Below, one piece after another: positions 620 through 57,539 of a stretch of 64,000 nucleotides of DNA. Source of the stretch: Malus domestica (taxonomy: Eukaryota; Streptophyta; Magnoliopsida; Rosales; Rosaceae); NCBI RefSeq assembly GCF_042453785.1, contig NC_091671.1:6642001-6706000 (forward strand), in the 5' to 3' direction. Made by a program: the position numbers and the translations under genes. The notes beneath the pieces are model-generated. The model worked only from the letters and a program-made list of their open reading frames with translations, did no database searches and had not been told where the DNA came from. Each line of letters starts with the position of its first letter. Positions within the stretch are counted from its first letter, which is position 1.

Positions 620-1080
620 GTTTTAGAAATCTCCGCCTAGCACCTAGGTGACACTAAATTGTTGATCACCGTCTCAATTAATCCATGGAAGTTTGTAAAT
701 TTAAAAATGACGCCTAGACCTGCTTAGGCGCCCACCTAACCCGCCCAAACCCGCCTAGGTTGCGATTCTCATTTAGACATAAAACAAATATCTTTCATTT
801 TGCATTTTATTTATTTCAATAAATTGTAAGAGACTTGTTAAATACTTAGATGAACACAAATTATATGCTTGTTGCTCGTGTTTTCATTATGTTCTAAATA
901 CTTTATAATCTATTTTGCAACTTTTGTATCTCAATGAAATTATGTACTTTATAAGTATAACCATACACTTATTTATACGATATATAACAAATTTACTTAA
1001 ATCCTCCTAGTCAGCCTAGGCCCTGCCTAGGCGCTAGGTCCCAACCTGCCGCTCGACTAGCGTCTAGGGTCATTTAGAAC
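620..1080. mobile_element. Non-autonomous element of the CCTAGGCG-rich family, copy 1
   Basis: This is the first of three dispersed copies, the others being at 27145-27636 and 41193-41665. All share GTTYTAAAAAT-like left and ATTTTTAGAAC-like right termini, subterminal clusters of CGCCTAGGCGCC-like palindromes, and an AT-rich centre containing ttcaataaattgtaagaga. There is no coding capacity. The short inverted termini suggest a DNA-transposon derivative, but the superfamily is not clear and I could not settle a target duplication. This copy is the most diverged at its left end. Confidence 0.6.
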
Positions 1081-2067
1081 CTTTGTCTCATCTAGTTATT
1101 TGTCATGCCATTATCGGAACCCAAGTTAAATCTACTCTGACACTTGGGCATGTTCGACTGCAGCTTCTAGAGAAGGTTGAACGAGTTCACCATTGTGTGG
1201 CATTTCAAGTTGCTAATACAGGTTATGTGTAAAATTATCTCCATATAGCCTTGTATAAGTGTTCCCCATACTTGACGTTCGGAGTACGGGAATCTCTATC
1301 GCTGTATTATATGTGAGCGGGCGCGAAGACACTAGCAAGTTACTAGGTGTCTCACATCGTCTTGGTTTGCAAACATGAAGTTAGGTGCAACCTACATCTC
1401 CATTGTAAGACTTGTTTTGAGTTGGGCGCGACCCAAAGAAAATACCACCTTACTATGTGCCTGTGTGGACCATAGGTGTGACATGCTTAATGCATTTTTT
1501 ATAATTCTTTTCTAAAAATCAGCATAGAATCATATTGGCGTAAAAGTTCTCTCAATTTCTCGATTCAACTTCCACTCTTTCTCTCTTTTTTTCCACTTTT
1601 CTTCTCGTTGTTATCGTCGATCACACCTTATATGCATCTCTCTCCCACATAAATTATAAGGTCTCGTTTGATGCTAAGATGGAATTAGCTATGCAGAAAA
1701 TTTATCCCTTTAATTTCTATAAAAATCTTGGAAGACCGGATATAATTTAGTTTTTTTTCATAATCGACTGCTTTCAACTTGAAAATTTTTTAGAAGTTAA
1801 CATTCATTTATTTCTTTAACATATTAATTCTAATAAGTTATTTAGTTTTATTCAATCTTGGACATCAAACAATGCCAAAAATGTCAGCAATCATATGGAA
1901 CACAAATTCCAATCCTCTTTGGGCTTTGTTTTCCTAGTTTGTTAAACGTTAAGCTCCAATAGACCTAGTTGGCTAACCATCTCCACTTGCCCCTTTTAAA
2001 ACTCTAGTCTCAACTAACTGCAGGTTATGGTACTGGCACGTGTCCTATTCAAATCCGTGTAACTGAT
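1081..2067. other. Intergenic sequence, probable old repeat debris
   Basis: No gene is recognisable. Around 1130-1500 the text has a retroelement-like flavour (tgtctcacatcgtcttgg and similar phrases), but no termini or motifs allow a family call. The rest is AT-rich. Confidence 0.4.
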
Positions 2068-2829: not shown

Positions 2830-3990
2830 TCATTTCAGGCAGTATTCTGTGTCTAATTTGCTTTCTGTACTCATTGATCATTGTGAAACATGTTAAGCAT
2901 GTTAAATTCTTCACCTGTCTCTGCATCTAAAGATCTTCATTTTAATATCCATTTTTGATCAGCTGGTAGATAATATATATGATATATTTTGGAAATTAGA
3001 ATAAATTGTGGCAAATGGGGTTATGATCTGTTGATGTTTTCCTTGTGAGAAATGATTTTCACACACCTTTTTTCTCTCTCTACTTTAATTATGACATGTA
3101 GAGTACCGCTTCAATATCCGGTATTTGGAAAGATCTCTCCAAATCATGTGATAAGAAAAAACCAAACATTCTAATCCCACACCACCAAAGTGGTGAAGAT
3201 TAGTAGAATGCTTTAGGAGATAAACTTTAGTGGGGTCGCCTGACCAACCATGTGGTCAAACCACTCTCACAAGCGAACGAGCCTCTTGTATTTGAATACC
3301 ATTTGGCCCGCGTAAGTGCAACTCTCAATGCACGGATCTCACGCCTTGTGACAGCACTGGACTGGTATACTTATTTGATGACTTCACAAACCCTAGAGCT
3401 TCTGTAATCGTCTTCCTTTCTTTGTTTTCCGAAGGACGTTCGAACTTGATTTTCACCGATGACACCTTAGATCCGATGATAAGTTTTCTCTGTTCTTTAA
3501 AAGGAATCGCTAACAAAAAAATTTGACCTCTACGAGAACTTAATTAGTCAAAATTAGAAAAATTAGCAGCTTGTTAGCATCTAATAGACTAATTCATTGC
3601 ATCAGTAGGCAACAAACAACAACAACCAAGCCTTATTCCACTAAGTTTTATTCCACTAAGTGGGTCGGCGGTATGAATTCTAGAACACCACTGTTCTCAG
3701 GTTTGCATCACCAGGCAATGCTTGGAAATTTTGCATTATACCATAATTAAGGACACCAAATTACAAACGATAACCATATGCATAGCAGCATAGGCATAGC
3801 TCTCCAATTTTATGCATCAAACTTCTGTACAATACCATGAACTTTGTTTTTCGAGTTTCTTTTGTTACAAACTAGGAGTCGATTTATATAAGAACGGTAG
3901 TTGGAACAGAAATTCATCGTAAATCCAAGGAGAATGTTTGGCTATAGAAGTTGACCTTGAAAGAGAACAAGAGTTGATGAACTCAATGCA
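2830..3990. other. Intergenic region between the TSP9-like gene and the inverted duplication
   Basis: It holds the TSP9 3' flank (about 2830-2990) and non-coding sequence. A minus-strand open frame at 3325-3516 has no recognisable domain and I do not support it as a gene. A short RTE-type LINE scrap is listed separately. Confidence 0.5.
3608..3682 (-). mobile_element. Short RTE-type LINE scrap
   Basis: The phrase caacaacaaccaagcctta, followed by ccactaag..gggtcggc, is a widespread plant sequence that I associate with the 3' region of RTE-clade LINEs. Only about 75 bases are recognisable. It includes a local duplication of 'ttattccactaag'. Strand is assigned by comparison with the longer remnant at 49385-49770. 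Confidence 0.4.
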
Positions 3991-4250
3991 ATCACTGCCC
4001 TAATTTGCTCACATAAGGGATAACTGAACCAAATAGATACATTTGTGTTGGATTTCATTTGCGAATTTTACGACAAATACAAAAACGATGGAGAGTGTTT
4101 CGAAACCAGCCTGCAACATGACTCGGTTGCAATCCTAACAAGGCATGGACAGTTGATCGCACTGTTAGGGATGAACTGAGATGAAACCTCCTCATAGGTT
4201 AATCTGGGGGCCGAAAATGTGTTAACAAAAACAGCACTTTATCTGTCTCG

Positions 4251-5721
4251 TCACTCGGCTGCATCAGAACTCTCATCTGCTGCCGTCCCTGCAATCCAAA
4301 ATCGAAAAACGAAACCAAATCAACAAGAGGAAATTCCAAGAAAAGATCATCACCATCCTATACAACGTTTTCCTCTCCGTAAAAGTACACAGAAAACCCA
4401 TGACTGGTTCGATGTAAAAATGTGAGTAATGTTTGATACAAACTTGTTTCCGTAATCTAATCACCCATCATTTTGCTACACGTCCCAGCTTGCAAGAATC
4501 AATAAATATGAGTTTGATAAAGAGAAACCGCATTGCCCCCTGCACCCGAAATCCTGTATTCGATTCCCCCCTCCATTAACATCGCACCTGAAATCCTGTA
4601 TTTGATAAATAAACAACCACACTGCACCTTGTCCCCGAGTTTCTATGTTCGTCTCCCCCCTCCCTAATATCGGTTATAAGGAACAGAAAAACCACATTGC
4701 CCGCAAACTTGTTATCCTCCACGTCCGAAATTTGGAATCAAATTAACCGCGGCATTGCTAACAATATGCATACATGTGTTGTGTTCTTATGCTCAATTCA
4801 AAAAATTGCAATCAATACTAAAAGACTGCAGCAAAAACTAGTTCTACAAATGCAGATAAACGAAACAAACCCGAATCAAATCATATCAAACCAGCTTCAA
4901 AAAATGGCGTAAGAGACTTAACCTTCAACTTCAACTCCTCCTTCTTCTTCCTCCTCCTCCTCCTCGTCCTCTGTCTCGCCGTCGTAATCAACCCCGTACC
5001 TTGCATTCAGATAATCCACAATCTCCGGCGTCATGATCAGCTTATCCGCATTCAAAATATCAAACAAATTCAAAGTCCTCCGCGTCAGCGTCTTCAAAGT
5101 CCCAATATTTCTGCTCGAAAGCCTCACATTGTTCGCCACCTCCGTCACCAGAAACGTCGTCTTCTCCTTCGGGTCCGAACCCCACCTCTTCATTGCCGCT
5201 ATAAACTCTGCCGTCTTCGGCTTCTCAAGCCTCTCGAACTCGTCGCTGAAATCCTCCACCTATCGTGTTCTCCGCGGCGCTCGCCACCCCCGTCGAAATC
5301 GCCAGCCGCTTCTCCTTCCGATTGATCTTGATGCTCCAATCCCTGGGCTTGGGTCCGAACACAACCCCACCGCCCGGTCGTAGCGGGTAAGGTTTTCTCC
5401 CTCCTCCGCTGACCTCTGCGTGGGTGAGGGTGGATGCTGTGCCGCGGCGCTTGTTCTGGAGGTCCGTGATGATGGCGCGGTGACGACGGCGCCCGCGGTG
5501 TGGCGGAGTGCGTACTTGAGGTCGAGGAAAGTTTACCCAACTTTTTCGCCGGTGAAGGAGAGGACTGGGAGGGTGGCGAGCTCGGCGGAGACGGAGAGGG
5601 GTTTAGAGATTTTGAGAGAATTGTTGGGTGCGAGGGCAGAGAGGGGTTTGTGGGAGGAGGAGGGGAGGAAGATTGAGGAGTTGAAGAAGGAGAGCGATAA
5701 GTGCGCTGCGGAGGTCGCCAT
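4251..5721 (-). pseudogene. Broken copy of the plastid ribosomal protein L4 gene
   Basis: This is the left-arm counterpart of the intact RPL4 at 12275-13789. The start codon (5719-5721), the transit-peptide region and the acidic C-terminal part are easy to recognise, and the 38-base last exon is kept (4251-4288). Reading is lost several times: a Gly-Glu pair has become Gly-stop soon after residue 60; one base is missing in the following Val-His region; 45 bases are gone between two CCCGC repeats, removing the conserved TGRARQGS segment; and two bases are missing before the EDFSDEF segment. A functional L4 cannot be made. Its neighbour in the arm, the Josephin-like gene, is intact, so decay is selective for the redundant RPL4 copy. 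Confidence 0.88.
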
Positions 5722-6740
5722 TGTTGGAGAGCTCAAGCTCGAGTGAGAGAGTTTATGACTGGTGTTGAAATTTGCTATCCACTACCACTGCGCCCACTGC
5801 CTATCCGTTGGGCGCCAGGCGCGTCTTTGTATAAACGACGTGTCGTGGATTTTCACATAATGTTATACGACCTTGCGCTTTTCCTCGACTATATGATGGT
5901 ATTGCATGCATGTGGGCTTGGGTGTTCTTGGGCCGGTCCACTTAAAAATCCAATCGTGCTTGGGCTGACCCGCTTGTACCTTAACTGAGTAAAGCAGTTA
6001 CCCATACTTGACCCGAAAATAAAAAAAGCAGTTACCCGTACAAGTAAAGTTTTATATTCGATTTTCCTGCTCTATATAACAATTTAGTTTAGTTGTGGTT
6101 TTACAGAAGAATTTACATTGAACAAGTTCATCATCACATGGTGTTCCAATCAAATGTATCGTGTAAGTTTCTCTATTTGTTATAAATTATAATACATTAT
6201 TGAACTGAATTGTTGAGAGATTTTTTAGTATGCCAGGACACATGTCAGTACACCAAATATTATAATTCAAATAGTTGAAAATTTTATTTTTAAGCTTCAC
6301 CAATTATATTATTATACCTATTGTATCGGGTTGTTGTTTCTGACATAATAAAAAATCTCTCTGAACTGTGACGATAATTTCGTGAGTTGCCATGATTTTG
6401 AGCTTTTGTCCGGCCTTTCAAAACCGGCTTAGTTCGCCAGAAAACAATGGGCCATAACACCACCTCAGTAAAACAATGGCCCACGACCCATTCGCCTCGC
6501 TCTCCTTCTGATGACGCGTCCCTACCCAACTTCAAACAAAATTCAACTTCCTTGGCCACTTCGCAGTTCGGTTTCTGCACACAGCCAAAAGCTACAACAA
6601 CCTTTTGGATTTATCTTTCTACGATTTATCCATTCTGGTGAGAAAGTAAAAAAGTTTCTGCGTTCACACCCAGTCGGTGGTTCGCCCCTTGAATTCATAC
6701 TTTCTCTCGTTAAAAGAACTGGAATTTTGAGAAATTGGAA
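5722..6740. promoter_or_regulatory. Shared upstream region between the RPL4 pseudogene and the left Josephin-like gene
   Basis: This one-kilobase divergent intergenic segment is the counterpart of 11403-12274 in the right arm. It keeps GGCCCA/TGGGCC motifs near 6447-6485, which resemble site II elements of ribosomal and housekeeping promoters. No other gene is visible inside it. Confidence 0.45.
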
Positions 6741-7539
6741 ATGGCGACCGACACCAATTCCCAAATCTATCACGAGCGGCAGAAGCTACAGTTTTGCCTC
6801 TTGCACTCGCTCAACAATCTTTTCCAGGTACCCTTTTCACAACCCATCTCTCTCGTTCCCTCTCTTTAATCTACTTCATGTTTGAATTTTGTTTTTATTA
6901 GGAGAAAGGTAATAGAAGAATACCGACTAATTATTTCTGCCCAAAACGATCATTCTGCTTTAATTTTATGATTTTAGACAACCTTAATTTGTATTTTTCG
7001 GTTTTAATTTGCTTATTTGATTTGAGTATTAAGTGGGTTTGATGTTAATTATCGAAAAAATGTATGTAGAACAGAAAAACGATGCATTTACTCGATCAAG
7101 CCTGAATGAGATTGCTGAAAAACTTATGCTTGAAGAACCCAACAAGGAAAAATGGACACCCTTTTCTGTGCTCTTTAAACCCCATCATAATTCACTCACT
7201 GGAAACTATGACATAAATGTGCTAATTGCTGCTTTAGAAGACAAGGGGAAGAATGTGGTTTGGCATGATCGGCGTAATGGGGCATCTTCAATTGATCTAG
7301 ATGGGCCTGAAGATGCTAATTTGATGGGTATTCTGCTTAATGTTCCTGTTAGAATGTTTGCCGGGTTGTGGAAAAGTAGACATTGGGTAACGTTGAGGAA
7401 GATTGGTGGGGTTTGGTACAATTTGGATAGCGAACTTGTTGCTCCTGAGGTCTTTGAAGATGCTGAAAAGGTTAGAGAATTCTTGGATTACATGATTGGA
7501 CATGGTGGAGAAGTTTTGCTTGTTATGAATAATAAATAG
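6741..7539 (+). CDS. JOSL: Josephin-like deubiquitinase, left copy (two exons)
   Basis: Exon 1 is 6741-6827 (29 codons, ending LNNLFQ before GTACCC) and exon 2 is 7075-7539 after an ACAG acceptor; the frame joins cleanly to give 183 residues. It is a single Josephin domain, the ataxin-3-type cysteine protease fold that cleaves ubiquitin linkages, with no ubiquitin-interacting motifs. The expected catalytic residues are present: Cys19 in QFCLLHSLNN, His132 in SRHWVTLRK, and Asp147 in WYNLDS, where ataxin-3 has Asn. It corresponds to Arabidopsis JOSL (At2g29640, from memory). The right-arm copy differs at only a handful of residues (for example SSI/SKI and EVF/AAF). Both copies look functional and face each other tail to tail. 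Confidence 0.88.
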
Positions 7540-8464
7540 TAATTTTCTTTTTACTTGAGTCAAAACATCCTTTTACTTGAATCAAAGTAATCTGATAGGA
7601 TGTTCAAATAACTCTATATAAACTCTGCTTGTAACAAACTCAATTTACATTCAGCTTAGAGAAGAAACAGTTTTGTTTCTTTTTCGTTTTCAGTTTGTTC
7701 CTATGCCCTGTGTGTATTCTGCTTCAGTGCTTAAGATTATTGAGGAGATGTTGGAATTAACAGGATGATGCATTGGGTGGTAAGGATGCTACTAAATGAT
7801 TTATGTGCTTGCATATCTGGTCTTGAAAGGGATTCTCCATTAATCTTGACGCGTTTGGTGGCTTCTGAGTTGATTTTTTCTGAGGTGAAATGTTAGTAGT
7901 TAAGGGCAATGTTCTCTTAGTAAACATCTGGATACTCATAGAAAAGATTGAGTTTGGTTTCATATGAATGTGGATCATATGCTTGACATAGTATGAGATA
8001 TTTTTGCACAACATTTTGTGCGAATTTGATCAAGAAATTGATTTCAAGTTGTCGCTAATCAGTATCGTTTGATACTTGACTAATGATATGTCTGACAGGG
8101 AAAGTTTGGATGGATTGATTGTGCTTTTTCCAAGTTTTGTTGACCACTTTCTTGCTCTATAGAAAATATAACTTAGTTTTGGATCTGTGACCGTTTGTTA
8201 ACCATTTTGTTTTTAATTTCCATTTTTTGGTTAGAGATAGAGGCTAAATACAGGGGAGAAAGGCGGATACAGGAAATTGGTGGAAGGGATGCGCAAGAAA
8301 TGTATACAGAATGGTACATAATATAAAAATTAGAAACAATTATAGATCTCACTTTCAAGTTTTTGTTTTAGATATTCTGTTTCATTTCTCTCCCCCACCG
8401 TTCTTCGCCCCTTTTCCCTTCATATCCTTCCGCTCGTCCTAGCACAAACAACGAAACTAAAACT
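7540..8464. other. Josephin-like 3' flank within the left arm
   Basis: This non-coding stretch is matched in the right arm by 9765-10605. It contains the Josephin-like 3' untranslated region and downstream sequence. No independent gene is supported; short open frames here are conserved only because the whole arm is duplicated. Confidence 0.6.
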
Positions 8465-9067
8465 TGTTGGGTTTTTTAGCCATGATGAGTTGTCGTAAGT
8501 TTATTAGGAATTATTGTCTTAAGTGGATTAAATTGTCTTAAGTCTATTAGAGGTCGCACTTGGTGCGATGGCAAGTGCCTTCGCCCATGAGCGGTAGGTC
8601 TCGGGTTCGAGACTTGGGAGCAGCCTCTCCATAAAATGGGGGTAAAGCTAGCCGACATTCACCTTTCCCAGACCCTGCGTAAAGCGGGAACCTTGTGCAC
8701 TGGGTACGACCTTTAATTGAATTAGTTTTTTTCCAATTGAAGTGATTTTTCCAATCGGAGTTGGTTTCTCGGAGGAGGAGTTATAACTGGGTTCCAATTA
8801 GGATTAGTATTCCTTACTGAAGAATACCTTTATTATATCTATATAAAGAAGCTTTGCACGAGTTTTGAATTGGAGCAAACTAATAAGTTGTATACCACTT
8901 AAGAAGTTAGAGTGAGAGAATATTGTAAGGGCAAAGTGTGCGAGAGAAAATAGAAAAGAAAAGGATACGAGTGTATTTTTTGTTCTTGTTTTTTCAAGTT
9001 TTTCGTCAAGTCTTAATCTTAGAAGTTTGGCAAGATTATTCTTTGTACTCATTATTGATATAGAGAA
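8465..9067 (+). mobile_element. Partial LTR (left-arm copy)
   Basis: It begins TGTTGGGTTTTTTAG, directly after the same flanking bases that border the complete solo LTR of the right arm, and ends where the inverted duplication ends. It corresponds to roughly the first 425 bases of the 532-base LTR, plus an inserted SINE. It is a fossil, and its presence at the same site in both arms shows the LTR predates the duplication. Confidence 0.8.
8552..8714 (+). mobile_element. tRNA-derived SINE (Au-like 3' half)
   Basis: It starts GGTCGCACTTGGTGCGATGG, with an A-box-like TGGTGCGATGG and a B-box-like GGTTCGAGACT, both RNA polymerase III promoter elements. The 3' half (CAGACCCTGCGTAAAGCGGG, then GTGCACTGGGTACGACCTTT) closely recalls the plant Au SINE tail. 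It lies inside the left-arm LTR and is absent from the right arm, so it inserted after the duplication. There is no clean target duplication; about 16 extra bases (tcttaagtctattaga) precede it and resemble sequence 30-40 bases upstream. Confidence 0.8.
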
Positions 9068-9334
9068 AGTAGAGGTTTGAATGTACTAAGATAACATCGA
9101 AAGATGAACAGCACTCAAGTTTTAAAACCCCGTTGAAATCATAACATAACATGCACTAGCTCTCTAGATCATCAACTTGTCATTAAACAAACTATCTTAT
9201 GGTGCCCATACCATTCCGTTTTAGTTTTGTTGTGGATATTGCGTTTAAGAATGGAAAAAACAAAACAAACTCGGACAACCGAAAACAAAATAACCAAGAC
9301 AGATCACACTAAGAATTAACGTGGTTCATCTATA
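9068..9334. other. Spacer of the inverted duplication
   Basis: Bases 9068-9227 have no counterpart in the other arm. Bases 9228-9334 are the remainder of the right-arm solo LTR. The duplication breakpoint therefore lies within the LTR. No gene is present. Confidence 0.75.
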
Positions 9335-9759
9335 TTCTCTATATCAATAATGAGTACAAAGAATAATCTTGCCAAACCTCTTAAGATAAAGACTTGACAG
9401 AATACTTGAAAAAACAAGAACAAAAAATACACTCTTATCCTTTTCTTTTCTCTCACACACATTGCCCTTACAATATTCTCTCACTCTAACTTCTTGAGTG
9501 GTATACAACTTATTATTTTACTCCAATTCAAAACTCGTGCAAAGCTTCTTTATATAGATATAATAAAGATATTCTTCAATAAGGAATACTAATCCTAATT
9601 GGAACCTAGTTATAAATCATTCTCTAAGAAACCAACTCCGATTGGAAAAATCACTTCAATTGGAAAAAAACTAATTCAATTACGAAAACAATTTAATCCA
9701 CTTAAGACAATAATTTCTAATAGACTTAAGACAACTCATCATAGCTAAAAAACCCAACA
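9228..9759 (-). mobile_element. Solo LTR with 5-bp target duplication
   Basis: It is bounded by TGTTG...CAACA inverted ends and by direct AGTTT repeats at 9223-9227 and 9760-9764. No internal retrotransposon coding sequence is attached, so it is a solo LTR left by recombination. On the minus strand it begins TGTTGGGTTTTTTAGC. Bases near its minus-strand end (taattcttagtgtgatctg) resemble LTRs of plant copia-type elements, but the lineage is not certain. A partial copy sits in the left arm. Confidence 0.8.
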
Positions 9760-9764
9760 AGTTT

Positions 9765-10605
9765 TAGTTTCGTTGTTTGTGATAAGATGAGTGGGAGGAT
9801 ATGAAGGGAAAAGGGGTGAAGAACGGTGGATGGAGAGTGTTGGGAGAGAGAAATGAAAGAGAATATCTAAAACAAAAACTTGAAAGTAAAAATTATAATT
9901 GTTTCTAATTTTTATATTATTTACCATTCCGTGTACATTCTTGCGCATCTCTTCCACCAATTTCCTGTATTTGCCTTTCTCCCCTGTATTTAACCTCTAT
10001 CTCTAACCAAAAAATGAAAACTAAAAACGAAATGGTTAACAAACGGTCCCAAATCCAAAACTAAGTTCTATTTTCTACAGAGCAAGAAAGTGGTTAACAA
10101 AACTTGGAAAAAGCACAATCAATCCATCCAAACTTTCCCTTTCAAACGTAGCATCAAACGATACTGATTAGCGACAACTTGAAATCAATTTCCTGATCAA
10201 AATTTGTGCAAAAATATCTCATACTATGTCAAGCACATGATCCATATTCATTTGAAACCAAACTCAATCTTTTCTAATGAGTATCCAGATGTCTACTAAG
10301 AGAACATTGCCCTTAACTACTAACATTTCACCTCAAAAGCCACCAAACGCGTCAAGATTAATGGAGAATCCTTTCCAAGACCAGATATGCAAGCACATAA
10401 ATCATTTAGTAGCATCCTTACCACCCAATGCATTATCCTACTAATTCCAACATCTCCTCAATAATGTTAAGCACTGAAACAGAATACACACAGGAACAAA
10501 CTGAAAACGAAAAAGAAACAAAACAGTTTCTTCTTACAAGCAGAGTTTATATACAGTCATTTGAAAATCCTATCAGATTACTTTGATTCAAGTAAAAGAA
10601 AATTA
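9765..10605. other. Josephin-like 3' flank within the right arm
   Basis: This is the right-arm counterpart of 7540-8464: the 3' flank of the right Josephin-like gene. No independent gene is supported. Confidence 0.6.
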
Positions 10606-11402
10606 CTATTTATTATTCATAACAAGCAAAACTTCTCCACCATGTCCAATCATGTAATCCAAGAATTCTCTAACCTTTTCAGCATCTTCAAAGGCCGCAG
10701 GAGCAACAAGATCGCTATCCAAATTGTACCAAACCCCACCAATCTTCCTCAACGTTACCCAATGCCTACTTTTCCACAATCCGGCAAACATTCTAACCGG
10801 AACATTAAGCAGAATACCCATCAAATTAGCATCTTCAGGCCCGTCTAGATCAATCTTAGACGCCCCATTACGCCGATCGTGCCAAACCACATTCTTCCCC
10901 TTGTCTTCTAAAGCAGCAATTAGCACATTTATGTCATAGTTTCCAGTGAGTGAATTATGATGGGGTTTAAAGAGCACAGAAAAGGGTGTCCATTTTTCCT
11001 TGTTGGGTTCTTCAACCACAAGTTTTTCAGCAACCTCATTCAGGCTTGATCGAGTAAATGCATCTTTTGTCTGTTCAACAAACATTTTTTCGATAATTAG
11101 CATCAAACCCACCTAATACTCAAATCAAATAAGCAAATTAAAACCGAAAAATACACATTAAGGTTGTCTAAAATCATAAAATTAAAGCAGAATGATCATT
11201 TTGGGCAGAAATAATTAGTGGGTAATCTTCTAGTACCTTTCTCCTAATAAAAACAAAATTCAAACGAGAAGTAGATTAAAGAGAGGGAAAGAGAGATGGG
11301 TTTTGAAAGGGTTACCTGGAAAAGATTGTTGAGCGAGTGCAAGAGGCAAAACTGTAGCTTCTGCCGCTCGTGGTAGACTTGGGAGCTGCTGTCGGTCGAC
11401 AT
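10606..11402 (-). CDS. JOSL: Josephin-like deubiquitinase, right copy (two exons)
   Basis: Exon 1 is 11402-11316 (MSTDSSSQVYHERQKL..., ending before GTAACC) and exon 2 is 11070-10606, after a GAACAG acceptor; both have exactly the same lengths as in the left copy, giving 183 residues. Cys19, His132 and Asp147 are kept. It differs from the left copy at about ten residues, mostly conservative, with no stop or shift. It is transcribed toward the left copy, so the two genes are convergent with their stops about 3.1 kb apart. It shares a short divergent promoter with the intact RPL4. The role is probably ubiquitin-linkage hydrolysis, with substrates unknown. Confidence 0.88.
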
Positions 11403-12274
11403 TTCCAATTTCTCAAAATTCCAGTTCTTTTACTGAGAGAACGTATGAATCCAAAAGGCGAATCACCGACTGGGTGTGAAAGGCAGAAACTTTTTACGAT
11501 TTGAGGAACCAGAGTGAATGATTTGAAGAAAGACAAATCCAAAAGCTTTGGCTGTGCAGAAACTGTTCTCCGAGGTGGACAAGGAAGTTGAAATCTGTTT
11601 GAAGTTAGGTAACGCGTCATGAGAAGGAGAGTGGGGCGAATGGGTCGTGGCCCTCCTGGCCCATTGTTTTACTGAGGTGGTGTTATGGCCCATTGTTTTC
11701 TGGCGAACTAAGGCGGTTTTGAAAGACCGTACAAAAGTTGAGGATAAATTTTTCAATGTGCCGGTAATGTAGTCCGATACATTAAATATAATAATACAAT
11801 TGATCGAAACCTTAAAAGAAAACTTTAACCAATTATATTATGACATTTAATGTAGCAGACAGTGTTCCGACACTTTGAAAAATCTCTCCATATAAAAAAA
11901 AAAAAAAAAACTTACACACAATAATACAGCATTTGATCGGGAACCACATGATGGTGAAGTTATTCCATGTAAATTCTTCTCTAAAACCACAACTAAACTA
12001 AATTGTTATATAGCAAAGGAAATTCAAATATAAAACTTTACTTGTATGGGTAAATGCTTTTACTCAGTTAAGGTACAAGCGGATCAGCCCAAGCATGATT
12101 CGATTTTTAAGTGGGCCGGTCCAAGCGCTGACACGACACGTCGTTTATACAAAGAAGCGCCTAGCACCCAACGGATAGGCAGCGGGCGCAGCGGTTGTGG
12201 ATAGCAAATTTCAACACCATCACTGAGAGTCACAAACTCTCTCTCACTCGAGCTCTCGCTCTCGCTCTCCAACA
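11403..12274. promoter_or_regulatory. Divergent promoter region between Josephin-like gene and RPL4
   Basis: These 872 bases separate two head-to-head start codons. They contain three site II-like motifs (GGCCCA at 11658-11663 and 11687-11692, and TGGGCC at 12112-12117), which are typical of TCP-regulated ribosomal protein and growth genes. A poly-A run lies near 11895. A bidirectional promoter is inferred from the arrangement, not shown. Confidence 0.5.
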
Positions 12275-13789
12275 ATGGCGACTTCCGCAGCGTCCTTATC
12301 ACTCTCCTTCTTCAACTCCTCAATCTTCCTCCCCTCCTCCTCCCACAAACCCCTCTCTGCCCTCGCACCGAAAAATTCTCTCAAAACCTCTAAACCCCTC
12401 TCCGTCTCCGCCGAGGTCGCCACCCTCCCAGTCCTCTCCTTCACGGGCGACAAAGTTGGGGAAACTTTCCTAGACCTCAAGTCCGCGCTCCCCGACACCG
12501 CGCGCGCCGTCGTCCACCGCGCCATCATCACCGACCTCCAGAACAAGCGCCGCGGCACAGCATCCACCCTCACCCGCGCGGAGGTCAGCGGAGGAGGGAG
12601 AAAACCTTACCCGCAGAAGAAGACGGGTCGGGCCCGCCAGGGGTCGACTCGAACCCCGCTACGACCCGGCGGAGGGGTCGTGTTCGGACCCAAGCCCAGG
12701 GATTGGAGCATCAAGATCAATCGGAAGGAGAAGCGGCTGGCGATTTCGACGGCGGTGGCGAGCGCCGCGGAGAACACGATCGTGGTGGAGGATTTCAGCG
12801 ACGAGTTCGAGAAGCTTGAGAAGCCGAAGACGACGGAGTTTATAGCGGCGATGAAGCGGTGGGGTTTGGACCCGAAGGAGAAGACGACGTTTCTGGTGAC
12901 GGAGGTGGCGAACAATGTGAGGCTTTCGAGCAGAAATATTGGGACTTTGAAGATGCTGACGCCGAGGACTTTGAATTTGTTTGACATTTTGAATGCGGAT
13001 AAGCTGATCATGACGCCGGAGATTGTGGATTATCTGAATGCAAGGTACGGGGTTGATTACGACGGCGAGACAGAGGACGAGGAGGAGGAGGAAGAAGAAG
13101 GAGGAGTTGAAGGTGAAGGTTAAGTCTCTTACGCCATTTTTTGAAGCTGGTTTAATATGATTTGATTCGGGTTTGTTCGTTTATCTGCGTTTGTAGAACT
13201 AGTTTTTGCTGCAGTCTTTTAGTATTGATTGAAATTTTTTGAATTGAGCATAAGAACACAACACATGTATGCATATTGTTAGCAATGCTCCGGTTAATTT
13301 GGTTCCAAATTTCGGACGTGGAGGATAAAAAGTTCGCGGGCAATGTGGTTTTTCTGTTTCTTGTAACCGATATTAGGGAGGGGGGAGACGAACATAGAAA
13401 CTCGGGGACAAGGTGCAATGTGGTTGTTTAGTTATCAAATACAGGATTTCGGGTGCGATGTTAATGGAGGGGGGAATCGAATACAGGCTTTCGGGGTGCA
13501 GGGGGCAATGTGGTTTCTCTTTATCAAACTCATATTCATTGATTCTTGCAAGCTGGGACGTGTAGGAAATGATCGGTGATTAGATTACGCTAACAAGTTT
13601 GTATCAAACATTACTCACATTTTTATATCGAACCAGTCATGGGTTTTCTGTGTACTTTTACGGAGAGGACAACGTTGTATAGGATGATGATGATCTTTTC
13701 TTGGAATTTTGTCTTGTTGATTTGGTTTCGTTTTTCGATTTTGGATTGCAGGGACGGCAGCAGATGAGAGTTCTGATGCAGCCGAGTGA
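12275..13789 (+). CDS. RPL4: Plastid ribosomal protein L4 (uL4c), intact
   Basis: Exon 1 is 12275-13118. A 633-base intron (GTTAAG ... T-rich tract ... GATTGCAG) leads to a 38-base last exon (13752-13789), giving 293 residues that end GTAADESSDAAE. If the intron is retained, the frame stops at 13123 with 282 residues, the length I recall for Arabidopsis RPL4 (At1g07320). Residues 1 to about 46 form a Ser/Pro-rich transit peptide. The L4 core follows, including PQKKTGRARQGSTRTP, the rRNA-contacting loop, and [12 protein letters not shown]. The C-terminus is strongly acidic (a long Glu run), as in plastid L4. The protein is part of the large subunit of chloroplast ribosomes and lines the peptide exit tunnel. 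The only other copy, in the left arm, is dead, so this one must serve. Confidence 0.92.
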
Positions 13790-14049
13790 CGAGACAGATA
13801 AAGAGCTGTTTTTGTTAACACATTTTCGGCCCCCAGATTAACCCATGAGGAGGTTTCATCTCAGTTCATCCCTAACAGTGCGATCAACTATCCATGCCTT
13901 GTTAGGATTGCAACCGAGTCATGTTGCAGGCTGGTTTCGAAACACTCTCCATCGTTTTTGTATTTGTCGTAAAATTCGTAAACGAAATCCAATACAAATG
14001 TATGTATTTGGTTCAGTTATCCCTTTTGTGAGCAAATTAGGGCAGTGAT

Positions 14050-14764
14050 TTCACAACCTTGTTCTCCTTGTGCCGTCCTCCTTCCTTTTGCCCCTTGATT
14101 CTCCACTAGGTTTTTCAATCGAAAGGCTAGAGAGACACAGACGAGTGCACGAGGAGAAAAGGGGTACGGAAATTACTACCCGTGAATTACTTTTACCAAT
14201 GCAATCTTCTTGCACAATTATCTTCATCCTTGTGGTCTTTTGTATGTGTGACAAAATGCTAAGCTCGCTTATTTGGTGTCTCTCTCAGTATTACAACTCT
14301 TTTGGGTCGAAGTTTTGTATCCAATGATATGATCTCGAACCAAATTTGGTAACAGGAAATTCGGAAAACTAAACCTTTTATAACACATGAAAGACTCGAG
14401 TCAGGGCTCATTTGGAAATGCTTCTAAAACGACTGACTGCTTCTTGCAGGAAGCGCTCCAAATGCTTTTGGAACTGAAAAACATTTTCTTTAAAAGTGCT
14501 TTTCAATCTAGCACCGAGTTCGGCTAATTGAAGTACAGTGAATTTAAAACTGAGTGTTGAGGAAGAAACCAGTTGCAATAGACGAGAGAACAAAATAATC
14601 GAAGCTGGTGAGTTATAGGCACTGTTTTCCTCTTTGTATCATAGAATTGCCACTCGGTTCCTCCCAGCCGTGCAGACTGATCGGCTCGGCCATGATGCTA
14701 TCAGCTAGCCCGAACCATGGACGAAAGCTCTCCCTCCCTGTGCAAGCACAGAAACAGGAAAAAG
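14050..14764. other. Intergenic region between RPL4 and the THIC riboswitch
   Basis: No gene is supported. Between about 14405 and 14515 lies a possible foldback fragment (ggaaatgcttctaaaacgac..., then ...aaaagtgctttt), similar in style to the element at 59700-59885. The rest probably contains the THIC distal 3' untranslated region and transcription end on the minus strand. Confidence 0.4.
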
Positions 14765-14765
14765 A

Positions 14766-14891
14766 GATGCACACTCCCTACGCAGGCATTAACCTGTTCA
14801 GGTTCAAAGGGACTATCTCAGCCTGACCTGCTCCTCGCATACTAACCACGAGGCCAGTGCTAGAGCAGATACAGGCACCCCTGGTGCGTCC
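14766..14891 (-). promoter_or_regulatory. TPP riboswitch in the 3' untranslated region of THIC
   Basis: On the minus strand the segment shows the conserved thiamin pyrophosphate aptamer: a GCACCAGGGGTGCC start, the CTGAGA core (in GGCTGAGATAGTCC), and ACCTGAACAGGTTAATGCC followed by TGCGTAGGGA, closing with a stem that pairs GCAC with GTGC. The extra P3 stem (CTGGCCTCGTGG...ATGCGAGGAG) is typical of plant versions. It starts about 510 bases beyond the THIC stop. In plant THIC genes TPP binding changes 3' untranslated region splicing: it exposes a 5' splice site, removes the normal processing site and gives a longer, less stable mRNA. This is negative feedback on thiamin synthesis. The position and strand here fit that model. 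Confidence 0.95.
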
Positions 14892-15398
14892 TTTATGTCA
14901 ATACGATGCTAACAATATAAACACAATATCGATGTAATATGAACGGAAAGCATTTTATTACGGAGAAACGTAAGCTCAAGCAAGAAAACGATAATGTCAT
15001 GAGTCTTCAGAATTATTTCACACACACCAAACTATGTCTATACCATAGCATGAAAATGAAAACCTCGCTGCGCACAAGCCGATCATGCACGAAAGCCTCC
15101 AGAGTCGTCAAACTGATTCTGGTTATTCACGTGATCCTGCAACTGTTCCCGTTGTAGAACAGAAGAACAAAATAATGAGAATAGCGTAGATGTGAGCGGT
15201 CTATTTGCTAAACGAAGATGATGGAATGCACGATAGCAAATTTCTTCTTCAAACCGATTCATCCTGTGAATGCAGCTTAAGTACAGAAATTGACAGTTTT
15301 ACAATGGCAAATTAAATTCTCCGCACCACTGATATTTCCCACAAAATCACATCAAGTTTATAGAAAATAGAAATTTAATAAAAAGAAATTACTGACCT
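14892..15398 (-). other. THIC 3' untranslated region with candidate regulated 5' splice site
   Basis: Directly after the THIC stop codon the minus strand reads TGAAG|GTCAGTAATTTC, a good plant 5' splice site in the place where riboswitch-controlled THIC genes carry theirs. The intervening 500 bases hold no open frame worth annotating. Which 3' splice sites are used cannot be fixed by eye. Confidence 0.65.
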
Positions 15399-17752
<2,354 letters not shown>

Positions 17753-27144: not shown

Positions 27145-27636
27145 GTTCTAAAAATTCTCATCTAGTGCCGTCTAGGTTCTGTCTAAGTGTTAGGTGGTTG
27201 GTCATCGTTCCGATTAATGTCTAGACATTGGAAAACTAAGAAAATGCGTCTAGACTTGCTAAGGAGTCTGCCTATGCCGCCCAGACCCGCCTAGGCACCC
27301 ACTTAGGTTGCGGCTCACTTAGACAGAAAACAGATAACTTTTATTTTGCATTTTATTTTTTTCAATAAATTGTAAGAAACTTGTTGAATACTTAAATGAA
27401 CACACATTATATGTTTATTCCTATGTTTTCATTATTTTACAATGATTCATAATATATATGTCATTCTACTTGTAGTTCATAATGAAATTATATATATTTT
27501 AAGTATAAACAAACATTTATTTATACGAAATATAATAGATTTACTTAAATTTGTCTAGTCCGTCTAGGCGCCTGCTAGCCACTTAAGCGCTAAACCCTAA
27601 CGCGCCGCCCGACTAGCGGCTAGCGTCTTTTAAAAC
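27145..27636. mobile_element. Non-autonomous element of the CCTAGGCG-rich family, copy 2
   Basis: It begins GTTCTAAAAATTCTCATC and ends GTCTTTTAAAAC, with the shared AT-rich centre (ttcaataaattgtaagaaac) and subterminal CCGCCTAGGC-type palindromes. At 492 bases it is the longest of the three copies and less well preserved than copy 3. Confidence 0.6.
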
Positions 27637-27807
27637 CTTGGTAGTACATTTAATAATTACACACATGATAATACCGTGTAACCGCATTTATGCTACATTT
27701 GAATAATACCTCGCAACACTTGAGGGTTGTAAAGCAGATTAATACGGCTCGAGTTCATATCAAGCTTGACACAAACTTGACTCATCGGTTTGGTTAGGAA
27801 TAAAAAC

Positions 27808-31600: not shown

Positions 31601-33443
31601 ATCTCTGACATCTGTGTTACTAGAAGATATCCCAAGGGATCAAGCTTCCTCATCAACTTACAACCCCGAAAGAAACATTGGTGTCTCAGAATCTAAGGCG
31701 GGAGGCAAGGCGAAAAGTGATTCATCCGCAATGAAGCCACATGACAGCACATTTTTGACACCTCAAACTGCAGTACAACCTGTTGAGGAATCAACAAGTG
31801 ACCGTTCAAATACAAGTTATTCAAAAAAATCACAGGTTTGTAACTCCTAGCAACTAAAGATACATACTTCCAATCAAATTTTTTGACTTTTTGTTTCTCT
31901 AGTAAAATGTTCTCTCATGATTTTCAGAATCAAAATTGTAAGGTTTTACTAATACTTACATTTCACATAACAGGAACAATGTAAGCCTACAGAAAAATCC
32001 GAGGAAGCCAACATCATACTGACTGAACAAGCTGAAGAAATTGGAGATCTATCACAAAAAACAGGAGAAGCTGCTTCAGAATTAAAAAAACAAGCTGCGG
32101 AAATTGAAAAAATATCGGGTAAAGCAAAAGAAGCTGCTGCCAAACTGAAAAAACCTGCTGAAGAAACAGGAAACTTATCACAAAAAGCAACCGAGACTAT
32201 TTTAGAATTAAAGAAGTCTGCAGAAGAAATTGAAAGCATGTCACAAAAAGCCCGAGAGGTTGCTGCTGAGATGAAAATTCCGGCTGAAGAAATTGTAAAC
32301 GTATCAAAAAAGGCAGCAGAAACTGTAGAGTTGAAAAAACCAGCTGAAGAAATAGAAAGTGTATCACAGAAAGCAACACAGCCTACAGTAGAATCTAAAA
32401 AACCGATTGAAGCAATTGAGAGTGCAACACAAAAGGCAACTGTGGCTCCTACAAAATTGATAAAACCAGGCGAAGCAATCAAAGAGGCACCAGAAAAAAC
32501 TACAAAGGTTGATGCAGAACTGAAGCAATCAGTAAAAGCAGCATCAAATGTATCACAAAAGGCAACAGAAACTGCCGCACGGTCAAAAATACCAATTGAG
32601 AAAATTGAAGATGCATCAGCAAAGACAACAAAGGTTGAAGCAGAAATAACGAAATCAGCTGAACAAACAGGAAATATATCGCAAAAAACAATAGAAGCAG
32701 CTTCAGAATTGAAAAAACAGGGTGATGAAATTGGAAGTGTATCAACAAAAGAAGTCGAGGCTACTGCAAAGGTGAAAAAACCAGCTGAAGAAGTTGGAAG
32801 TGTGTTATGTAAGGCAACAGAGGCTCCGGTGGTACTAAAAATACCATCTGAAGAAGTTGGAATAATATCACAGAAAGCTAGTAAGGCTCCTGCAATATTG
32901 AAGCATCCATCCGAAGAAATTGCAAATGTATCACAAAAAGCAAGCGAGACTCCAGCAGAACTTAAAAAACCAGCTGAAGAAATTGAAAGTGTATCGCAAA
33001 AAGCATCAAAGGCAGCCACAGAATCAAGAGATTTAACCGAAAAAGTTGAAAATGTATCAAGAAAAAAAATAGAGGTAGTTGCAGAGTTGAAAAACCCAGC
33101 AGAGGAAAATGGAAACGTTTCAACTGGGGTAACTGTAGAAGTGGAAAAACCAGTTAAAGTTCCGAGTGAATCACAAAGAGCAACTGAGGCTACTGTAGAA
33201 CTGAAAAAGTCGGCTGAAGAAGTTGGAAGTGCACCACAAAAAGAGACGGAGGCTCGTGTAGCTTTGAAAAAATCATCTGAAGAAATCGAAAGTGGATCAC
33301 AAAAAATGATAGAGGCTCCAGAAAAAATAAAACATCCAGTTGAAGAATTAGGTACTGTATTACAACAAGCAACAATGGCTGGGCTAGAATTGTTACCACC
33401 AGCTAAAGAAACTATTGAAGGAAGGACCTCCGGTTACTTATGA
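28651..33443 (+). CDS. Large membrane-anchored repeat protein (At1g07330/At2g29620-like), truncated by a retrotransposon
   Basis: Exons are 28651-29857, 29966-31023, 31116-31835 and 31974 onward; the frame is continuous for 1484 codons, the last ten (TIEGRTSGYL and partner base) running into the inserted LTR. Residues about 25-75 hold two adjacent hydrophobic membrane segments. Around residues 240-400 is the conserved core of a plant family of unknown function: WTDDDQRNLMDLG, IERNRRLESLIARRRARKLF, NTPFDYA, PGSAPPILLP, NPFDLPYDPQEEKP. Exons 2-3 are long, acidic and probably disordered, with a Ser run from (TCA)n. Exon 4 is an array of about 22 repeats of 21 residues, consensus close to SQKATEAAAELKKPAEEIESV, predicted helical and rich in Lys/Glu. 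A copia element inserted at 33412 cuts the gene. A truncated product is possible; the native 3' end is lost or decayed. Confidence 0.8.
32017..33412 (+). repeat. In-frame 63-bp minisatellite coding 21-residue repeats
   Basis: About 22 tandem units occur without a frame break. Each has the pattern S-Q-K-A-x-E-x-x-x-E-L-K-K-P-A-E-E-I-x-x-V with many substitutions, so the array is not freshly homogenised. One unit (STGVTVEVEKPVKVPSE) is short. The alternating Lys/Glu spacing suggests an extended amphipathic helix or coiled coil resembling LEA- or apolipoprotein-style repeats. Further, more decayed units resume after the retrotransposon at 38509. Confidence 0.85.
33408..33412. repeat. Target site duplication of the copia element (left)
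   Basis: GAAAC directly precedes the 5' LTR and recurs at 38509-38513 directly after the 3' LTR, the 5-base duplication expected of copia integration. Confidence 0.9.
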
Positions 33444-33754
33444 CTACTCTTCATTAGGGTTTTATCTAGTTAATAGCTGTCTATTTTCTTCTTGATCTTA
33501 TCTCCTCATTTCAAGGAAGATTAGTGTGGCCCTATGCCGGCTGCTTTGCATGATTTAAGGAGATTAGTGTGGCTGATTAGTGTGGCTCCCTATGTCTCAA
33601 TTAGCTGTCTTGCATGATTTAAGGAGATTAGTGTGGCATCCTATGCTGGCTGTCGTGAGTGTTGAGTGCAGTTTGCAACTCACTCAAACTCTTCTATATA
33701 TTTTGCGTAACCTTTGGATGCTTGAGAACATAATCAAAACCACAAACTTCAACA
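33413..33754 (+). repeat. 5' LTR of the copia element
   Basis: The 342-base LTR begins TATTGAAG and ends CTTCAACA. The usual start would be TG; TA is present in both LTRs, so the variant was inherited at integration. It contains internal repeats of 'gattagtgtggc' and 'tgcatgatttaaggagatta'. Confidence 0.92.
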
Positions 33755-38145: not shown

Positions 38146-38508
38146 TATTGAAGGAAGGACCTCCGGTTACTTATGACTACTCTTCATTAGGGTTTTATCT
38201 AGTTAATAGCTGTCTATTTTCTTCTTGATCTTATCATCTTGTGTAAGGGTCTTATCTCCTCATTTCAAGGAAGATTAGTGTGGCCCTATGCCGGCTGCTT
38301 TGCATGATTTAAGGAGATTAGTGTGGCTGATTAGTGTGGCTCCCTATGTCTCAATTAGTTGTCTTGCATGATTTAAGGAGATTAGTGTGGCATCCTATGC
38401 TGGCTGTCGTGAGTGTTGAGTGCAGTTTGCAACTCACTCAAACTCTTCTATATATTTTGTGTAACCTTTGGATGCTTGAGAACATAATCAAAACCACAAA
38501 CTTCAACA
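38146..38508 (+). repeat. 3' LTR of the copia element
   Basis: The 363-base LTR follows the polypurine tract. It differs from the 5' LTR by a 21-base tandem-type length difference around 'cttatc' and about two substitutions. Confidence 0.92.
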
Positions 38509-41192: not shown

Positions 41193-41665
41193 GTTCTAAA
41201 AATCCCCGCCTAGCTCTGCCTAGGCGCTAGGCCCCAGCCCACCGCCCCGATTAATGCCTAGGCCCCAGCCCACCGCCTAGACCACCTAGGCACCCGCCTA
41301 ACCCGCCTAGGCACCCGCCTAGACCCGCCTAGGTTGCAACTCACTTAGACAGAAAATACATAACTTTCATTTTGCATTTTGTTTTTTTCCAATAAATTGT
41401 AAGAGACTTATTGCATACTTGAATGAACAAACATTATATCCTTATTTCACATGTTTTCATTATGTTCCAATACTTCATGATATATATGCATTGTATTTTG
41501 TAGTTTATGATGAAATTATATATATTTCAAGTAGAAGCAGACACTTATTTACATAAAATATGATAGATTTACTTAAATCCGCCTAGTCCGCCTAGGCGCC
41601 CGCCTAGCCGCCTAGGCCCTAGGCTCCAACCAGCCGCCCGACTAGCGCCTAACAATTTTTAGAAC
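41193..41665. mobile_element. Non-autonomous element of the CCTAGGCG-rich family, copy 3
   Basis: This is the best-preserved copy: GTTCTAAAAATCCCCGCCTA at the left and CAATTTTTAGAAC at the right form about 11-base inverted ends. Subterminal regions are dense in CCGCCTAGGCGCC palindromes, including a local amplification of 'ccgcctaggcacccgccta' near 41283. The AT-rich centre matches copies 1 and 2. Confidence 0.65.
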
Positions 41666-41899
41666 CTTAATTATGAATGGTAGATGCGCAAGTTACCCCC
41701 AAAATTTGTTGACAAACAATTGACTAATTATGAATGGTAGATGCGCCAGTTAGCCCTAGTAAGCGACATCCACAATCACAAGAAAGTTAGATTTAGACAA
41801 AGCAAGAAAGCTGGTGACATCCTCCACACAACAAAAGGCCACTCCTATTCAAATAAGTAGGTAGTAATATAGTTACGTAGAGTATTGTCTGACGAGTTA

Positions 41900-56592: not shown

Positions 56593-57539
56593 ATTGAGAA
56601 TAATATAAACATACCAATACACAATGTGTACAAAATAAAACGTACCAAAATAAAAATAATGTACCAATATTAACAATATGTATCAAATCAAACGTACCAA
56701 AATTACAAATAAACGTACCAATTAATGATTTTTGTAAATTCAAACGTACTCGCAGATAATATATACATATTGTATTGTACCTAAAAATAATTCGTCAACA
56801 ACTATACTTAAAAAACAGCAAAATAAAAATATAATTTCACAAAAAAAATTGAAAAAAATTACACGGAGCTTTTATGTTGATCACCAACTATTTGAAAAAG
56901 AAAAAAAAAACCATTTGGAAAAAGAAATAATATTAAATGTTTGCCAAAAAAATTGTGATTAAAAAAACATATTTGGAAGAAGAGAAAATATAGTTTAATT
57001 ACTAATATCTCCACTAAATAAGAAAAAGTGCATCATGCAAATAAAAGGATAAATTCAAAAATTATTTTAATTTAAAAAAAAATAGAGGTGATTATTGGTC
57101 AAAGAACTTTAATCAAATTTTAAAAAGGCACAGATGTTTAATCTAAATAATATAGAAAAACTGTAGTGGATTCTAATGCATGATTAATTGAAATTTGATA
57201 AAATAGTTAGATTTTTTTCATTTTTTGGTAACAGAAAGTTTAGAGGGAGATTGATTATTCTCGCTACCAGCGTTAAGGTATACCTACAATTTTGAATTGG
57301 AAAGACTTCCGCGTGACTGCAATCTCCTATCGATATGAATTTACAAAAAAAAAAAATTATGTATCGTACATCAACAAGAACGACATAGACTCAAACTTTA
57401 GTGAAGCGACATACAAGTAAAGATGAGCTTACTAACTAAGCCAATTTCTACTGCTGAGATAAGAAATCCTTTTCAAACTCTTTGTACAGTTGCAACTTGA
57501 AAGAGTAGGGGGCCCTCATGTGGTTTTTCCTCCGGGCTA
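56593..57539 (+). repeat. Tandem duplication, unit 1
   Basis: The unit begins attgagaataa, contains many 'aacgtacca' words, and ends gggggccctcatgtggtttt followed by tcctccgggcta. It is followed immediately by a second copy. The shared tail (ctgctgagataagaaatcct onward) is almost identical, while the AT-rich part differs by many small indels. It is non-coding. Confidence 0.8.

What the first reader, a model, noticed from the sequence alone, without database searches (positions are those of the whole stretch)
3991..14049. Ten-kilobase near-palindrome containing a duplicated RPL4 / Josephin-like gene pair
Seen: the two arms (3991-9067 and 14049-9335) are reverse complements across genes, promoters and flanks, with about 2% substitutions in a 360-base sample and a spacer of only 267 bases. 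Inference: a single inverted duplication, perhaps one to two million years old at usual plant rates. Such tight palindromes are unstable and uncommon in plant euchromatin, and may also reflect assembly of two haplotypes.
Basis: partly seen in the sequence, partly recalled or inferred. Interest (0 to 1): 0.7.

Follow-up and report, generated by a model that had tools for sequence, protein, structure and literature searches.

The report
Old inverted duplication of gene pair
A stretch of plant chromosome carrying a chloroplast-ribosome gene and a deubiquitinase-type gene was copied backwards beside itself several million years ago, probably by a DNA-copying slip, leaving one spare deubiquitinase-type gene and one dead ribosomal gene; it is a real and instructive but ordinary kind of rearrangement.

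Summary
The near-palindrome is real: arms 3990-9067 and 9335-14050, spacer 9068-9334. The arms differ by about 5% (noncoding K=0.0535), not 2%, with a far more diverged patch between the two promoters. The colinear locus on contig C3 (the genome looks like apple) has one RPL4-Josephin pair, in right-arm orientation, so the left arm is the inverted copy. Both junctions show microhomology (AATC; up to TAGAGA), and a 1.14 kb C3 segment is missing on C11 exactly between them: the deletion / copy-neutral / inverted-duplication (1-0-1-2-1) signature of replicative template switching. The inner breakpoint lies inside a solo LTR that C3 lacks; a SINE-like element is in the left arm only. Age is about 5-8 My at 3.9e-9 per site per year, not 1-2 My. 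Left RPL4 is a pseudogene, right RPL4 intact; both Josephin genes are intact, the C3 one is broken. Divergence varies along the arms, hinting at partial gene conversion, but no significantly homogenised tract was found. A haplotype artefact is very unlikely on sequence grounds; reads were not available. An RNAi-hairpin role is possible but unsupported.

The parts
3990..9067 (-). Left arm: the younger, inverted copy of 9335-14050
   Evidence: Self-BLAST and global alignment; absent from the colinear position on C3
9335..14050 (+). Right arm: the ancestral copy, colinear with C3
   Evidence: C3 7974-11831 (coordinates of L009+L010+L011 end to end) aligns colinearly to 9761-14008
9068..9334 (.). 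Spacer, single copy: ancestral flank (9071-9206 matches C3 7530-7672) plus the first 107 bases of a solo LTR
3990..3993 (+). Outer junction, 4-bp microhomology AATC shared by left flank (as on C3) and right-arm end (14047-14050)
9061..9066 (+). Inner junction, up to 6-bp microhomology TAGAGA shared by arm (9336-9341) and C3 7518-7523; one or two extra A follow
9228..9759 (-). Solo LTR (TG...CA), 5-bp target duplication AGTTT at 9223-9227 and 9760-9764; partial copy in left arm 8465-9067. Strand inferred.
   Evidence: ends and TSD read from sequence; 34 of 46 listed genome matches span query <=6 to >=530 of 538, the window's own not counted; absent at C3
8547..8714 (+). SINE-like high-copy element (tRNA-like boxes judged from memory, not tested) inside the left LTR copy only
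   Evidence: 42 listed matches, the window's own included, 39 of them at 97% or more (40 of 1178 candidates scored); missing in right arm
6741..7539 (+). Josephin-like gene, left copy (predicted exons 6741-6827, 7075-7539; 183 aa, intact)
10606..11402 (-). Josephin-like gene, right copy (predicted exons 11402-11316, 11070-10606; 183 aa, intact)
12275..13789 (+). Plastid ribosomal protein uL4c gene, right copy, intact (predicted exons 12275-13118, 13752-13789; 293 aa)
4251..5721 (-). uL4c pseudogene, left copy (in-frame stop, frameshifts, 45-base deletion)
5849..6740 (.). Left shared promoter region with a MITE-like repeat (about 6215-6362); counterpart of right 11403-12130 (repeat about 11748-11889); strongly diverged between arms

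Best explanation
It is a germline inverted duplication, most likely made in one replication-repair event, after the whole-genome duplication that gave the C3/C11 pair. Shown by sequence: the order kept on C3 is left flank, 1.14 kb, spacer, Josephin (-), RPL4 (+), right flank. On C11 the 1.14 kb is absent and an inverted copy of the 4.7 kb Josephin-RPL4 block stands in its place, with microhomology at both junctions. Inferred: a nascent strand ending AATC at the left flank switched to the complementary GATT about 6 kb ahead, copied the block backwards to a point inside a solo LTR, then switched back at TAGAGA 1.14 kb beyond where it had left. This is FoSTeS/MMBIR-type template switching or an equivalent templated break repair. 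Afterwards the left RPL4 decayed and both Josephin copies stayed intact; at some time the C3 Josephin gene was broken. The intact complement found is two RPL4 (right arm, C3) and two Josephin genes of this type (both arms). Uneven divergence hints that part of the arms was later homogenised by gene conversion. The palindrome itself most likely has no function beyond the extra Josephin copy.
For: Single-copy, right-oriented C3 locus and colinear flanks. The missing 1.14 kb C3 segment matched only itself in the genome, and both its edges fall at the two junctions. Microhomologies of 4 and up to 6 bp have random rates of 2.1% and 0.2% in 200,000 simulated junctions. The inner breakpoint is inside an LTR whose relatives run end to end elsewhere, so the LTR came first. 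Noncoding arm K=0.053 against 0.23-0.25 between right arm and C3. Josephin arms: Ka=0.033, Ks=0.082, ratio 0.40, Fisher p=0.037. Left RPL4 broken. C3 Josephin: no exon-1 match and the match ends at residue 142 of 183; a high-copy repeat lies where exon 1 would be.
Against: The ancestral C11 state is known only through C3, so the 1.14 kb could in principle be a C3 gain, and the junction bases are proxies; the genome DNA search warns that no match does not prove rarity. The TAGAGA junction carries one or two unexplained A's. A single event cannot be told from two. No reads and no other Rosaceae genome were available. The promoter patch (K 0.12-0.29) does not fit one uniform age. For conversion: the permutation variance test gives p=0.0005 (all sites) and 0.025 (noncoding), but the scan for a homogenised tract gives p=0.14 and 0.77.
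Confidence: 0.8

Rival explanations
1. Assembly artefact: two haplotypes of one locus joined head to head.
For: The source's reads are unseen; heterozygous assemblies can carry false duplications (inference).
Against: Arm divergence of about 5% against reported heterozygosity 0.85-1.28% (PMC7728601, passage). Inverted orientation, unique spacer, microhomology junctions and a co-located deletion. Only the left RPL4 is a pseudogene and only the left arm has the SINE-like insert.
Confidence: 0.04
2. ODIRA or fold-back origin: an inverted triplication or similar intermediate formed first and was later eroded to the present deletion / neutral / inverted-duplication layout.
For: Brewer et al. 2024 (PMC10766186; abstract and section 6 read) derive the 1-0-1-2-1 pattern from an eroded triplication.
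Against: Needs two steps; the DNA search with the outer 1.5 kb shows no third copy on C11; both junctions are simple microhomologies.
Confidence: 0.15
3. Functional hairpin locus: read-through of the tail-to-tail Josephin genes across the centre makes double-stranded RNA and siRNAs that silence Josephin, as at Arabidopsis PAI4-PAI1 and VIM4-VIM2.
For: Tail-to-tail Josephin orientation as in PAI4-PAI1 (PMC13213937, passages). 70 identical runs of 21 nt or more between arms. The central 977 nt folds into a near-continuous stem (-548.9 kcal/mol, 0 of 20 shuffles as good), which any inverted repeat would.
Against: About 3 kb separates the Josephin stop codons; 5% divergence; no transcript or small-RNA data. 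No strong excess of C>T/G>A among arm-specific changes (28 C>T/G>A against 21 T>C/A>G of 66 in two noncoding blocks). Both genes intact under some constraint.
Confidence: 0.08
4. Not exclusive with the best explanation: the event is much older than 5-8 My and much of the arms has been homogenised by gene conversion; the diverged promoter patch keeps the original age.
For: The share of arm-specific over C3-specific changes varies by block (0.13 to 0.46; chi-square p=3e-5 over six blocks; RPL4 5' block against RPL4 3' side p=5e-7; noncoding Josephin side against RPL4 3' side p=0.002); permutation variance p=0.0005.
Against: Blocks were chosen after looking. Noncoding-only variance p=0.025, scan maximum p=0.07 (0.016 all sites); the scan minimum, the direct sign of a homogenised tract, is not significant (p=0.77 noncoding, 0.14 all sites). 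The patch includes coding sequence and differing MITE-like repeats. Conversion from C3, or faster local evolution, could do the same.
Confidence: 0.25

Closest known systems
Human deletion / copy-neutral / inverted-duplication variants (1-0-1-2-1), e.g. at the Factor 8 locus (PMC10766186, abstract, section 6)
   Same: Deletion, unduplicated spacer, inverted duplicate, a junction with little or no homology.
   Different: Here in a plant, only about 6 kb across and millions of years old; both junctions are microhomologies; the deletion is inferred from a homoeolog.
MMBIR/FoSTeS template switching (PMC2621351, title and start of abstract seen in the listing; model otherwise recalled)
   Same: Microhomology at both junctions, change of copying direction, accompanying deletion.
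   Different: The event is inferred from its scar.
Arabidopsis PAI4-PAI1 and VIM4-VIM2 inverted repeats (PMC13213937, passages)
   Same: Gene-scale inverted repeat; Josephin genes tail to tail like PAI.
   Different: The VIM arms are reported 100% identical over first exon and intron, and both loci give siRNAs; here arms differ by 5% and no RNA data exist.
Primate Y palindromes with arm-to-arm gene conversion (PMC6790999, start of abstract in the listing)
   Same: Paired inverted arms; uneven divergence hints at conversion.
   Different: Plant locus on a numbered chromosome, conversion only suggested.

Membership tests
Deletion / neutral / inverted-duplication (1-0-1-2-1) rearrangement | Inverted duplicate next to a copy-neutral spacer | tested here: met
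Deletion / neutral / inverted-duplication (1-0-1-2-1) rearrangement | Deletion at the insertion point of the inverted copy | tested here: met
   1.14 kb C3 segment missing exactly between the junctions; C3 stands proxy for the ancestor, so a C3 gain is not excluded
Deletion / neutral / inverted-duplication (1-0-1-2-1) rearrangement | Microhomology or little homology at junctions | tested here: met
   AATC and up to TAGAGA
Deletion / neutral / inverted-duplication (1-0-1-2-1) rearrangement | Initiating inverted triplication (ODIRA) | not testable with these tools
   No intermediate or relative available
siRNA-producing gene palindrome (PAI/VIM type) | Near-identical arms able to form long perfect stems | tested here: not met
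   About 5% divergence; longest identical run 136 nt, 70 runs of at least 21 nt
siRNA-producing gene palindrome (PAI/VIM type) | Read-through transcript, siRNAs and non-CG methylation | not testable with these tools
   No expression, small-RNA or methylome data
Gene-converted palindrome | Tracts of homogenised arm sequence | tested here: inconclusive
   Block heterogeneity p=3e-5; permutation variance p=0.0005 all sites, 0.025 noncoding; scan minimum p=0.14 and 0.77
Haplotype-duplication assembly artefact | Arm divergence at the level of heterozygosity | tested here: not met
   5% against 0.85-1.28%
Haplotype-duplication assembly artefact | Half read depth and no spanning reads | not testable with these tools
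   No reads
Mobile fold-back element | Many copies with inverted ends | tested here: not met
   The outer 1.5 kb (3991-5500) matched elsewhere only the right arm, C3, and RPL4 exon fragments on C8, C13 and C15 (12 matches)
Solo LTR | TG...CA ends, target-site duplication, no internal region, end-to-end relatives | tested here: met

The most novel reading that the evidence does not exclude
A small plant palindrome that has survived for millions of years because its arms are kept alike by gene conversion and its tail-to-tail Josephin genes form a self-regulating hairpin locus, holding the only intact genes of this Josephin type detected in the genome.
Probability: 0.07. Interest if true: 0.6.

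Novelty: new member of a known kind. Interest (0 to 1): 0.3.

Why it matters
The locus gives base-level anatomy of a 1-0-1-2-1 inverted duplication in a plant, with a sister copy in the same genome that fixes direction and order of events. It indicates that a near-palindrome with a 267-base centre can persist for millions of years, and that gene loss on one homoeolog (C3 Josephin) can coexist with local duplication on the other.

Tried and rejected
Rejected: mobile fold-back element; two-haplotype artefact; an age of 1-2 My. My first thought that these were the only Josephin genes in the genome was corrected: Pfam Josephin also hits C4 and C12 (two exons each) and single stretches elsewhere (14 matches in all); only this subtype is confined to C11 plus the broken C3 copy, at E <= 0.001 (5 matches). 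C>T excess as a methylation footprint: none clear. Folding the centre only restates the inverted repeat. Paper searches for this locus: Josephin + Malus domestica + inverted gave 0 papers; apple genome / palindrome / inverted duplication / gene pair / tail-to-tail, any two, gave 711 papers, of which I saw 8 listed and none was on it. Rows dropped: gap columns are left out of all K values; the diverged promoter region (right 11403-12130) is left out of the 'well-aligned' totals and told apart; C3 7530-7873 (L009), part of a small local repeat on C3, was left out of the three-way alignment. On re-checking I lowered the conversion rival from 0.30 to 0.25 because the non-significant scan minimum had been left out, and the eroded-triplication rival from 0.20 to 0.15 so that exclusive readings do not add to more than 1.
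Full report
The window lies at G000:C11:6642001-6706000 of a 651 Mb genome in 19 contigs. No call names the organism. Colinear C3 and C11 loci, contig lengths and size point to apple: published haploid apple assemblies are 652-668 Mb and 658 Mb (PMC7728601, PMC13334179, passages); [quoted passage not shown]

Observation. Self-BLAST and a global alignment show inverted arms 3990-9067 and 9335-14050, spacer 9068-9334. Well-aligned blocks hold 168 differences in 3,472 sites (K=0.050; noncoding 0.0535). The region between the Josephin and RPL4 genes is far more diverged: K 0.17-0.23 in 250-base windows over right 11335-12084, and 0.29 for the block 11751-12130. Both arms there carry related but different MITE-like repeats, 74% alike.

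Direction. The C3 locus has one RPL4-Josephin pair. From left to right it reads: left flank to window 3993, a 1.14 kb stretch unmatched on C11, the spacer (window 9071-9206), then the right arm colinearly to 14008, then right flank and the THIC gene. So the right arm and spacer are ancestral and the left arm is the inverted copy. The 1.14 kb stretch matched nothing else in the genome (that search warns that no match does not prove rarity), and its two edges coincide with the two junctions.

Junctions. Outer: AATC is shared by the left flank (as on C3) and the end of the right arm. Inner: TAGAGA is shared by arm and C3, with one or two extra A's. In 200,000 random junctions of this window with its own reverse complement, 4 bp or more occurred in 2.1% and 6 bp or more in 0.2%. 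Deletion, neutral spacer and inverted duplicate make the 1-0-1-2-1 pattern described for human variants (PMC10766186, abstract and section 6). I favour a two-switch copying event; the eroded-triplication route stays open.

Order of events. A 532-base LTR with TSD AGTTT sits at 9228-9759; 34 of 46 listed genome matches, the window's own not counted, run from query position 6 or less to 530 or more (a lower bound, as 40 of 241 candidates were scored). C3 lacks it. The left arm's LTR copy stops at about LTR position 102-108, where the spacer begins, so the LTR was there before the duplication. A high-copy SINE-like element (8547-8714) is in the left LTR copy only. The five other LTR copies I aligned (L018-L022, of 30 loci fetched) show no large insert at that site, so I take it as a later insertion.

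Age. Noncoding arm K=0.0525 +/- 0.0051, 6.7 My at 3.9e-9; RPL4 3' side 4.9 My, Josephin 3' side 8.0 My, LTR part 8.1 My; right arm to C3 0.228, 29 My (rate from PMC7728601, passage). These depend on the rate and, if conversion acted, are minimum ages.

Uneven divergence. The share of variable sites that separate the arms, rather than setting C3 apart, runs from 0.13 (RPL4 3' end) to 0.46 (RPL4 5' block); chi-square p=3e-5 over six blocks, coding ones included, and p=0.002 between the two long noncoding blocks (blocks chosen after looking). Permutation of site order gives variance p=0.0005 for all sites and 0.025 for noncoding sites; scan maximum p=0.016 and 0.07; scan minimum p=0.14 and 0.77. 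So divergence is uneven, with a diverged patch at the RPL4 5' end, but no significantly homogenised tract. Partial gene conversion is a suggestion only.

Genes. Right uL4c is intact (293 aa as spliced by me); left has an in-frame stop, frameshifts and a 45-base deletion in a stretch conserved in the solved plastid uL4c 5mmi; the C3 gene is open. Both Josephin genes are 183 aa. The right one aligns with Josephin-2 (6pgv) over the Cys, His and Asn positions of the triad (triad positions recalled), and the left has the same letters there. Ka/Ks between arms is 0.40, Fisher p=0.037. The C3 Josephin copy has no exon-1 match and its protein match ends at residue 142 of 183, with small frame-shifting differences visible in its sequence; a high-copy repeat lies where exon 1 would be. 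Fourteen Josephin-domain matches occur genome-wide, including two-exon hits on C4 and C12. Arabidopsis has an MJD gene At1g07300 (PMC8281628, passage), and plastid RPL4 is AT1G07320 (recalled), so the neighbouring pair may be ancient.

Function. Nothing shows that the palindrome itself acts. A hairpin-RNA role like PAI/VIM (PMC13213937, passages) is possible: tail-to-tail genes, 70 identical runs of 21 nt or more. But arms are 5% apart, stop codons 3 kb apart, and there is no RNA evidence. Verdict: a real, old, well-explained inverted duplication of modest interest.

Noticed in passing
G000 C15:38088000-38094500 (L012), C13:38063500-38070000 (L013), C8:11269500-11276000 (L014): At least three copies of a 1.3 kb element with roughly 260-380 base terminal inverted repeats carry an RPL4 exon fragment (window 12329-12906). 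Exact 9-base flanking duplications at C15 and C8 and an imperfect one at C13 suggest a Pack-MULE.
   Followed up: partly
window 14757-14892 (-): TPP riboswitch (RF00059, 68.9 bits) on the 3' side of the THIC coding stretch (15399-16838, Pfam ThiC_Rad_SAM), about 700 bases from the palindrome's outer end.
   Followed up: no
window 33413-33754 and 38146-38508: Direct repeats with 2 mismatches and one gap, 4.7 kb apart: perhaps LTRs of a young retrotransposon.
   Followed up: no
window 56605-57539 and 57547-58457: Adjacent direct repeat of about 0.9 kb, 89% identical.
   Followed up: no
window 749-1083, 27270-27639, 41296-41668: Three dispersed direct copies of a roughly 350-base repeat at 79-82% identity.
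   Followed up: no
L009 7530-8000 (C3): Small local duplication on C3 of the stretch next to the Josephin 3' end: window 9129-9206 matches it twice.
   Followed up: no
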